A DNA stretch of 64,000 bases from Mycosarcoma maydis (Eukaryota; Basidiomycota; Ustilaginomycetes; Ustilaginales), in NCBI RefSeq assembly GCF_000328475.2, contig NC_026479.1:1116001-1180000 (forward strand). Direction: 5' to 3'. How positions within the stretch are numbered: the stretch's first letter is position 1; each line of letters starts with the position of its first letter. Shown piece by piece: positions 27,920 through 53,570 of the stretch. The translations under genes were made by a program, and so were the position numbers. Under the pieces are notes generated by a model, which was given only the letters and a program-made list of their open reading frames with translations, was not told the origin of the DNA and made no database searches.

Positions 27920-28023
27920 CTCCCAACGTGGGGCTCGAACCCACGACATTCAGATGTACTCCGAGAAATCTCGGAAACCCTTGTAGTAAGAGTCTGACGC
28001 TCTACCGACTGAGCTAGCCGGGA
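27920..28023 (-). tRNA. tRNA-Lys (anticodon CUU) with a 31-nt intron
   Basis: Read on the minus strand this folds as a complete cloverleaf. The acceptor stem is TCCCGGC/GTTGGGA (five Watson-Crick and two G-U pairs). The D arm is GCTC-AGTCGGTA-GAGC, the anticodon stem TCAGA/TCTGA, the variable loop ATGTC, and the T arm GTGGG-TTCGAGC-CCCAC. The discriminator base is G. The anticodon loop is CT-CTT-A, interrupted after position 37 by an intron at 27956-27986, then A38. The intron contains AAG, able to pair with the CTT anticodon as in other eukaryotic pre-tRNAs. Mature length is 73 nt without CCA. The internal A and B boxes of the pol III promoter are the D and T arms. Confidence in amino-acid identity is high. 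Confidence 0.96.
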
Positions 28024-52461: not shown

Positions 52462-53570
52462 ATGTCTCTTCCCGACTTCTCTTCCGCTGCCAACCTCGCC
52501 AAGCTCGACGGCTTCCTTGCCGACAAGTCCTACGTTGACGGGTAAGCTTGTCCTCCAACCATCGCCTATCGAGTCTCTGCTAGCTCCTAATGGTCCATCG
52601 ACTCTCTATCAAGGGGGGCGAAGCGAGAACGAATACCAGGCGACAGCCGTAGCTCGTTCAAGGCTGCGCATTGAACTTGGAGGAGTGGGTGGATGAACCC
52701 CCCTTAGGTACTGGAAACAACATGATGAACTTTTTGCTTTGGTCCGTGTTTCTGAGCCCAGCGGCTTAAGACCCCGCGACCTTTTCTGCGTTGACGAAAC
52801 CCAACTATTTCCAAGCTATCTGATCTTTGTTTTCCATGCCGGTGGTTTAATTGAACAGGACCTATGGGAATTGCTAGAGAGACTCGGCAAAGCGAAGAAT
52901 GTTGCCTGTAGCACTAGTGCAGTGTTCCTGACCATTTTCCTTCTCTTGATCTTGCTCTCTGTGCCTCGACAGCCACTCAGCCTCGCAGGCCGACGTCGCC
53001 GTTTACGAGGCTATCGGTAAGGCCCCCGAGGCTGACAAGTACTCGCACGTTGCCCGCTGGTACGAACACATCGCCTCGTACGAGGCTGAGCACAAGGACT
53101 TGACTGGTGACAAGGCAAAGGCCGCATCGTTGCTCTCGTCCACCTTCGCCGCCCCCGCTGCGGCTGCCGGTGGTGACGACGACGACGATGTTGACCTTTT
53201 CGGTTCCGACGACGAGGTCGACGAGGAGGCTGAGCGTATCAAGGCCGAGCGTGTCGCCGAGTACAACAAGAAGAAGGCTGCCAAGGGTCCCGGCCCCGCT
53301 GCCAAGTCGCTCGTCACGCTCGACATCAAGCCCTGGGATGATGAGACCGACATGAAGGAGCTCGAGGCTTCGGTCCGTGCTATCGAGATGGACGGTCTCG
53401 TTTGGGGTTCCTCCAAGCTCGTCGCCATCGGCTACGGTGTTAGCAAGCTCCAGTGCTCGCTCGTTGTCGAGGACGCCAAGGTTTCGCTCGATGAGCTCCA
53501 GGAGCGCATCGCCGACGAGTGCGAGGACTACGTCCAGTCCACCGATGTCGCCGCCATGGCCAAGATCTAA
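52462..53570 (+). CDS. EFB1: Translation elongation factor eEF1B alpha (EF-1 beta), two exons
   Basis: This protein recharges eEF1A with GTP. Exon 1 is 52462-52541 and exon 2 52973-53570, joined across a 431-nt intron with donor GG/GTAAGC and acceptor CGACAG. The 225-residue product starts [27 protein letters not shown] at the ATG of 52462. The join gives [18 protein letters not shown], the conserved GST-C-like N-terminal region, then [15 protein letters not shown]. An acidic linker ([13 protein letters not shown]) contains the classic LFGSDDE casein kinase 2 site. The C-terminal exchange domain ([42 protein letters not shown]) covers about 135-225. The intron carries a U18 snoRNA. Reading frame continues across the splice and all landmarks are present. 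Confidence 0.97.
52713..52835 (+). ncRNA. SNR18: U18 box C/D snoRNA in the eEF1B intron
   Basis: Box C is ATGATGA (52722-52728), box D' CTGA (52752-52755), and the terminal box D CTGA (52820-52823). A weak C' (TTGACGA) lies at 52791-52797. Flanking GGAAACAA (52713-52720) pairs with TTGTTTTCC near 52827-52835 with one bulged T, giving the terminal stem. The guide directly before D', TTTGGTCCGTGTTT, is complementary to the large-subunit rRNA sequence AAACACGGACC. The D'+5 rule puts 2'-O-methylation on the A corresponding to yeast A649, with C650 next to it. U18/snR18 has this guide in yeast and human, and in budding yeast it lies in the intron of EFB1, the same host. Release would follow debranching and exonuclease trimming. 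Mature ends are estimates. Confidence 0.95.

What the first reader, a model, noticed from the sequence alone, without database searches (positions are those of the whole stretch)
52713..52835. U18 snoRNA retained in the eEF1B intron
Box C, D' and D, a terminal stem, and an 11-14 nt rRNA guide identify U18/snR18. In budding yeast the same snoRNA sits in the intron of EFB1 (established knowledge), and here a basidiomycete keeps it in the same host gene although it has lost most introns. This explains the unusually long 431-nt intron and implies strong selection for this pairing across the fungi, while human U18 lies in a different host (RPL4).
Basis: partly seen in the sequence, partly recalled or inferred. 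Interest (0 to 1): 0.75.

Follow-up and report, generated by a model that had tools for sequence, protein, structure and literature searches.

The report
U18 guide RNA in eEF1B intron
A smut fungus carries the ordinary U18 guide RNA, which marks one ribosomal RNA site for methylation, inside the same intron of the same translation-factor gene as baker's yeast; a second guide RNA, and probably a third, also sit in the same host genes as in yeast, so the pairing is old but not unique.

Summary
It is the best-scoring U18 match in the 19.66-Mb genome (32.5 bits, E 0.003), though below Rfam's curated 41 bits. The C-box/guide/D' signature occurs once genome-wide. The intron lies at exactly the yeast EFB1 position (Gly27: GG|T in yeast, GG|C here), so shared descent is far likelier than re-insertion. 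Three claims need correction. 431 nt is not shown to be unusual. "Strong selection for this pairing" is not shown, and the pairing is not special: in the same genome snR38 sits in the eEF1B-gamma intron (yeast host TEF4) and a weak U24 match in a RACK1 intron. The D' box is canonical CUGA, not the yeast AUGA tied to double methylation, so mainly the A, not the A/C pair, should be methylated. Expression and methylation were not testable. New member of a known kind; moderate interest.

The parts
52462..52541 (+). eEF1B-alpha exon 1, coding part, 80 nt, ends GG of Gly27
   Evidence: translation and junction
52542..52972 (+). host intron, GTAAGC...CGACAG, 431 nt
   Evidence: spliced frame is intact, 225 aa
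52973..53570 (+). eEF1B-alpha exon 2 with EF1_GNE domain
   Evidence: Pfam PF00736 E 5.3e-32; one match in the genome search
52713..52835 (+). U18 box C/D snoRNA
   Evidence: RF00093 match 52717-52785, boxes
52712..52720 (+). 5' arm of terminal stem
52722..52728 (+). box C ATGATGA
52741..52751 (+). D' guide, 11 nt perfect to 25S rRNA (13-15 nt with recalled flank, from 52737); T52747 faces the A to be methylated
52752..52755 (+). box D' CTGA (canonical)
52767..52772 (+). possible accessory pairing TAAGAC with 25S GUCUUG next to the target; weak
   Evidence: 1338 of 20000 shuffles do as well
52791..52797 (+). box C' TTGACGA
52820..52823 (+). box D CTGA
52827..52836 (+). 3' arm of terminal stem
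52928..52932 (+). likely branch site CTGAC, A 41 nt from the 3' splice site
   Evidence: only CTRAY in the last 120 nt of the intron

Best explanation
52713-52835 is the U18 (SNORD18/snR18) box C/D snoRNA of this smut fungus. It is made from the excised intron of eEF1B-alpha: splicing, lariat debranching and exonuclease trimming should stop at the terminal stem bound by the snoRNP proteins (inferred). Its D' guide pairs with the conserved LSU rRNA sequence AAACACGGACC, and fibrillarin should methylate the A five nucleotides from D' (yeast A649 equivalent) (inferred). The intron and its snoRNA were inherited from the common ancestor with budding yeast and kept while most other introns were lost.
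For: Rfam match with the complete guide, best of the genome. Signature unique in the genome. All four boxes and a stem. Guide antisense to the NL-4 site used on Ustilago and Sporisorium LSU. Intron position identical to yeast: the published primers that flank the yeast EFB1 intron read ...GAAGG|TACTGCT, the window reads ...GACGG|CCACTCA, both GG|N of the same Gly. Yeast and C. albicans U18 lie in EFB1. Intronic U18 in Fusarium falls when the debranching enzyme is deleted (PMC9606315 passage).
Against: Score below the Rfam gathering score. Stem, fold and accessory pairing are not significant alone. No LSU rRNA with this exact site was found in the assembly: the only other 14-mer hit (C23) is not rRNA, so the target is taken from a universal primer. 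No expression or methylation data. No relatives' DNA could be compared. A published Rfam screen of the basidiomycete Pleurotus ostreatus lists seven snoRNAs, none of them U18 (PMC5040776 passage).
Confidence: 0.94

Rival explanations
1. U18 re-entered the eEF1B gene independently in the smut lineage (convergent host choice), because highly expressed translation genes are favoured hosts.
For: snoRNAs are known to move between hosts (PMC3511168 title and abstract start; PMC8476143 section 10). Human U18 is in RPL4 (recalled).
Against: The intron is at the same nucleotide of the same codon as in yeast. A second snoRNA, snR38, also sits in its yeast host at the same codon boundary, and a weak U24 match sits in RACK1.
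Confidence: 0.05
2. A decayed U18 pseudogene, with the functional copy elsewhere.
For: Rfam score below the curated cut-off. Neurospora has two U18 copies.
Against: All boxes and the guide intact. No second copy of the guide signature in 19.66 Mb. The next RF00093 matches score 23.0, 20.1 and 18.8 bits.
Confidence: 0.02
3. A chance set of boxes in an ordinary intron.
For: CTGA and stems of this size are common.
Against: The box C + guide + D' combination is expected about 0.001 times per genome (arithmetic) and its reversed control occurs 0 times. It lies in the intron where yeast has U18.
Confidence: 0.01

Closest known systems
Yeast snR18/U18 in the EFB1 (TEF5) intron
   Same: Same host gene, same intron position and phase, same D' guide target. 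Yeast host stated in PMC2705663 and PMC3938493.
   Different: Yeast U18 has D' AUGA and C' AUGAGUGA and methylates two neighbouring nucleotides (PMC5389607). Here D' is CUGA and C' UUGACGA without the extra nucleotide.
Human SNORD18 / Rfam RF00093
   Same: Guide and D' identical to the family consensus UGGUCCGUGUUUCUGA.
   Different: Host gene RPL4 in human (recalled). The smut RNA is longer, about 123 nt against a 71-position model, and scores below the family's gathering score.
N. crassa CD46A/CD46B
   Same: Intronic U18 homologues targeting 26S Am635 with the D' guide.
   Different: Two copies, on chromosomes VII and I, 89 nt; hosts not stated in the passages I saw.

Membership tests
box C/D snoRNA | box C RUGAUGA and box D CUGA near the ends | tested here: met
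   52722 and 52820
box C/D snoRNA | terminal stem next to boxes C and D | tested here: met
   9 bp with one bulge; 106 of 5000 shuffles and 2 of 14 other box pairs as good
box C/D snoRNA | internal C' and D' boxes | tested here: met
   D' CTGA 52752, C' TTGACGA 52791
box C/D snoRNA | binds fibrillarin, Nop56, Nop58 and Snu13 | not testable with these tools
   none
U18 / SNORD18 | D' guide antisense to LSU AAACACGGACC | tested here: met
   11 nt without mismatch to the reverse complement of primer NL-4; own rRNA not available
U18 / SNORD18 | Rfam RF00093 gathering score of 41 bits (a detection threshold, not a biological criterion) | tested here: not met
   32.5 bits; still the best match of the genome, E 0.00275. 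In the 14 control genomes weak matches ring in 10 at E up to 10, in 0 over the cut-off
U18 / SNORD18 | 2'-O-methylation at the A649-equivalent | not testable with these tools
   needs RiboMeth-seq or primer extension
yeast-type U18-EFB1 pairing | intron at the same position in eEF1B-alpha | tested here: met
   GG|C against GG|T of the aligned Gly
yeast-type double-methylating U18 | suboptimal D' (AUGA) and C' with one extra nucleotide | tested here: not met
   CUGA and UUGACGA against PMC5389607 section 9

The most novel reading that the evidence does not exclude
A fixed set of host/snoRNA couples in genes of the translation machinery (eEF1B-alpha/U18, eEF1B-gamma/snR38, RACK1/U24) has stayed together since the ancestor of yeasts and smuts and resists intron loss as a set. 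Within it the smut U18 has the canonical D' box and makes only one of the two methyl groups that yeast U18 makes, so the second methylation would be a budding-yeast gain or a smut loss.
Probability: 0.35. Interest if true: 0.5.

Novelty: new member of a known kind. Interest (0 to 1): 0.36.

Why it matters
It ties one old snoRNA to one old intron at nucleotide precision across the ascomycete/basidiomycete split. It gives a clear reason why an intron-poor smut kept this intron. It also yields a sharp test of the D'-box rule: mainly one methylation here, two in budding yeast. It is not a new kind of system.

Tried and rejected
rRNA target in the same genome: the RF02543 search did not complete. 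A 14-mer search found only the snoRNA itself and a place on C23. I first took the latter for rDNA, but Rfam shows no rRNA there at gathering scores, so I dropped it as a chance hit. A viral-contig scan for the LSU 18-mer gave 5 contigs, 0 of 5 rRNA by Rfam. Scans of viral and prokaryote contigs for the snoRNA signature gave 0 and 0, as expected for a fungal RNA.

The D guide (upstream of 52820) has no known target: the test against L004 was not informative because L004 is not rDNA. The snR61 match overlapping the snoRNA (16.2 bits, cut-off 45, E 8.1) is rejected. A second structured RNA in the intron is not supported (the GRIK4 match is 19.6 bits against a cut-off of 38). The accessory pairing is not significant.

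Novelty check: 10 literature searches ran (one search was rejected for its wording). In their listings and in the passages I opened I saw no paper reporting U18 in eEF1B of a basidiomycete; listings were capped. The most relevant work, Canzler et al. 2018 'The fungal snoRNAome', is not held, so it may already list this gene. I opened 15 papers, as passages found by search terms (at most 12 each); whole sections were read only of PMC5389607 (section 9) and PMC8476143 (section 10). Opened without use for the question: PMC5033589 (its snR18 matches are prefix matches to snR189), PMC3596301, PMC3315463, PMC12309372, PMC8522698.

Full report
What is there. The window belongs to a 19,664,356-base, 27-contig genome. 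Of the 120 best homologues listed, the closest named eEF1B proteins over the full length are from Sporisorium (95 and 91% identity), so it is a smut fungus; size and contig number fit Ustilago maydis (recalled, not tested). The gene at 52462-53570 encodes eEF1B-alpha: Pfam EF1_GNE E 5.3e-32 and the central acidic region. It is the only EF1_GNE match in the genome search. Its coding sequence is split once, by 52542-52972 (431 nt, GTAAGC...CAG), with one CTRAY branch site 41 nt from the 3' end.

The snoRNA. Boxes C (52722), D' (52752), C' (52791) and D (52820) are all present and a 9-bp stem closes the ends. Rfam SNORD18 matches 52717-52785 with the full guide: 32.5 bits, below the curated 41, but the best match in the whole genome, E 0.00275, 9.5 bits over the next of four (59 of 1952 candidates scored). 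The joint signature box C + guide + D' occurs once in the genome and its reversed control never. Structure alone is weak evidence: stem 106 of 5000 shuffles and 2 of 14 other box pairs, 133-nt fold z -1.50, whole intron z -0.54, accessory pairing 1338 of 20000 shuffles.

Target. The guide GGTCCGTGTTT is the first 11 nt of the universal fungal LSU primer NL-4, which one study used on yeasts including Ustilago esculenta and Sporisorium reilianum (PMC4252105 passages). So it is antisense to AAACACGGACC in fungal 25S rRNA. The rRNA of this genome itself was not recovered: the RF02543 search did not complete, and the only other exact 14-mer hit is not rRNA. By the five-nucleotide rule the A opposite T52747 is the methylation site, which is yeast A649 (number recalled).

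One or two methyl groups. Yeast U18 methylates two adjacent nucleotides. Its D' is AUGA and its C' carries one extra nucleotide; in an artificial construct changing D' to CUGA reduced methylation at one of the two sites and left the other unchanged, while deleting the extra nucleotide alone had little effect (PMC5389607 section 9). The smut RNA has CUGA and a C' without insertion.

Same intron as in yeast. The primers used to delete the yeast TEF5/EFB1 intron (PMC2705663 Table 3) spell the yeast junction ACAAGTCATACATTGAAGG|TACTGCTGTTTCTCAAGCTGA. The window reads ACAAGTCCTACGTTGACGG|CCACTCAGCCTCGCAGGCCGA. Both break the same glycine codon after its second base. The same paper states that the TEF5 and TEF4 introns encode snR18 and snR38.

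Not a special pair. I therefore tested two further yeast host/snoRNA pairs in this genome. The eEF1B-gamma gene (PF00647, one match) has an intron with a snoR38 match, 35.4 bits (cut-off 45), the only RF00213 match of the genome at E up to 1 (E 0.0038; 62 of 675 candidates scored; the 14 control genomes ring in 4, none over the cut-off). The splice lies at the Tyr|Val boundary as in yeast TEF4, within one nucleotide, which the primers cannot resolve. The only RF00069 (U24) match at E up to 1, 29.7 bits and E 0.05 (cut-off 41; 59 of 3017 candidates scored; controls ring in 7 of 14, none over the cut-off), lies in an intron of a gene whose exon matches RACK1 structures; yeast U24 is in ASC1, its RACK1 (recalled). 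U24 is the weakest of the three: its E-value is near that of chance and Rfam's alignment shows no consensus box C. RPL7/snR59 and NOG2/snR191 intron positions are published as kept in eight intron-poor fungi including U. maydis. So retention of yeast host/snoRNA pairs looks like a general pattern in this lineage.

Limits of the evolutionary claim. Hosts of U18 are established in what I saw only for S. cerevisiae, C. albicans and, now by sequence, this smut. Neurospora has two intronic copies whose hosts I did not see. A Pleurotus ostreatus Rfam screen lists seven snoRNAs, none U18. PMC8476143 names only RPL7 and NOG2 as intron positions kept in all eight intron-poor fungi; none of the terms I searched for eEF1B or U18 occurs in its main text outside one reference title. 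Yeast without snR18 is viable (PMC3938493 passage). 'Strong selection for this pairing across the fungi' goes beyond the data. Length is also no argument: Pseudozyma hubeiensis introns average 426 bp, and the two other snoRNA introns read here are 428 and 379 nt.

Verdict. A real U18 snoRNA in an old, position-conserved intron; known kind; possibly already catalogued in Canzler et al. 2018, which I could not read.

Noticed in passing
L015 1912-1990 (-), genome C5:1200411-1200489: snR38 in a 428-nt intron of the eEF1B-gamma gene, as in yeast TEF4; only RF00213 match of the genome at E up to 1.
   Followed up: yes
L018 1501-1574 (-), genome C5:1096644-1096717: Weak U24 (SNORD24) match in a 379-nt intron of a RACK1 gene; yeast U24 is in ASC1 (recalled).
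   Followed up: partly
window 27920-28023 (-): tRNA gene (51.9 bits) with about 30 extra bases in the anticodon region, probably an intron; anticodon by eye CTT (Lys).
   Followed up: no
L004 6199, genome C23:219998-220011: Exact 14-mer of the LSU U18 target outside any recognised rRNA; taken as chance.
   Followed up: partly
L009-L013: Five of five IMG/VR contigs share the leader CGAAACACGGACCAAGGAG shortly before an ATGCCAAAAGGA; probably a phage gene leader, not rRNA.
   Followed up: no
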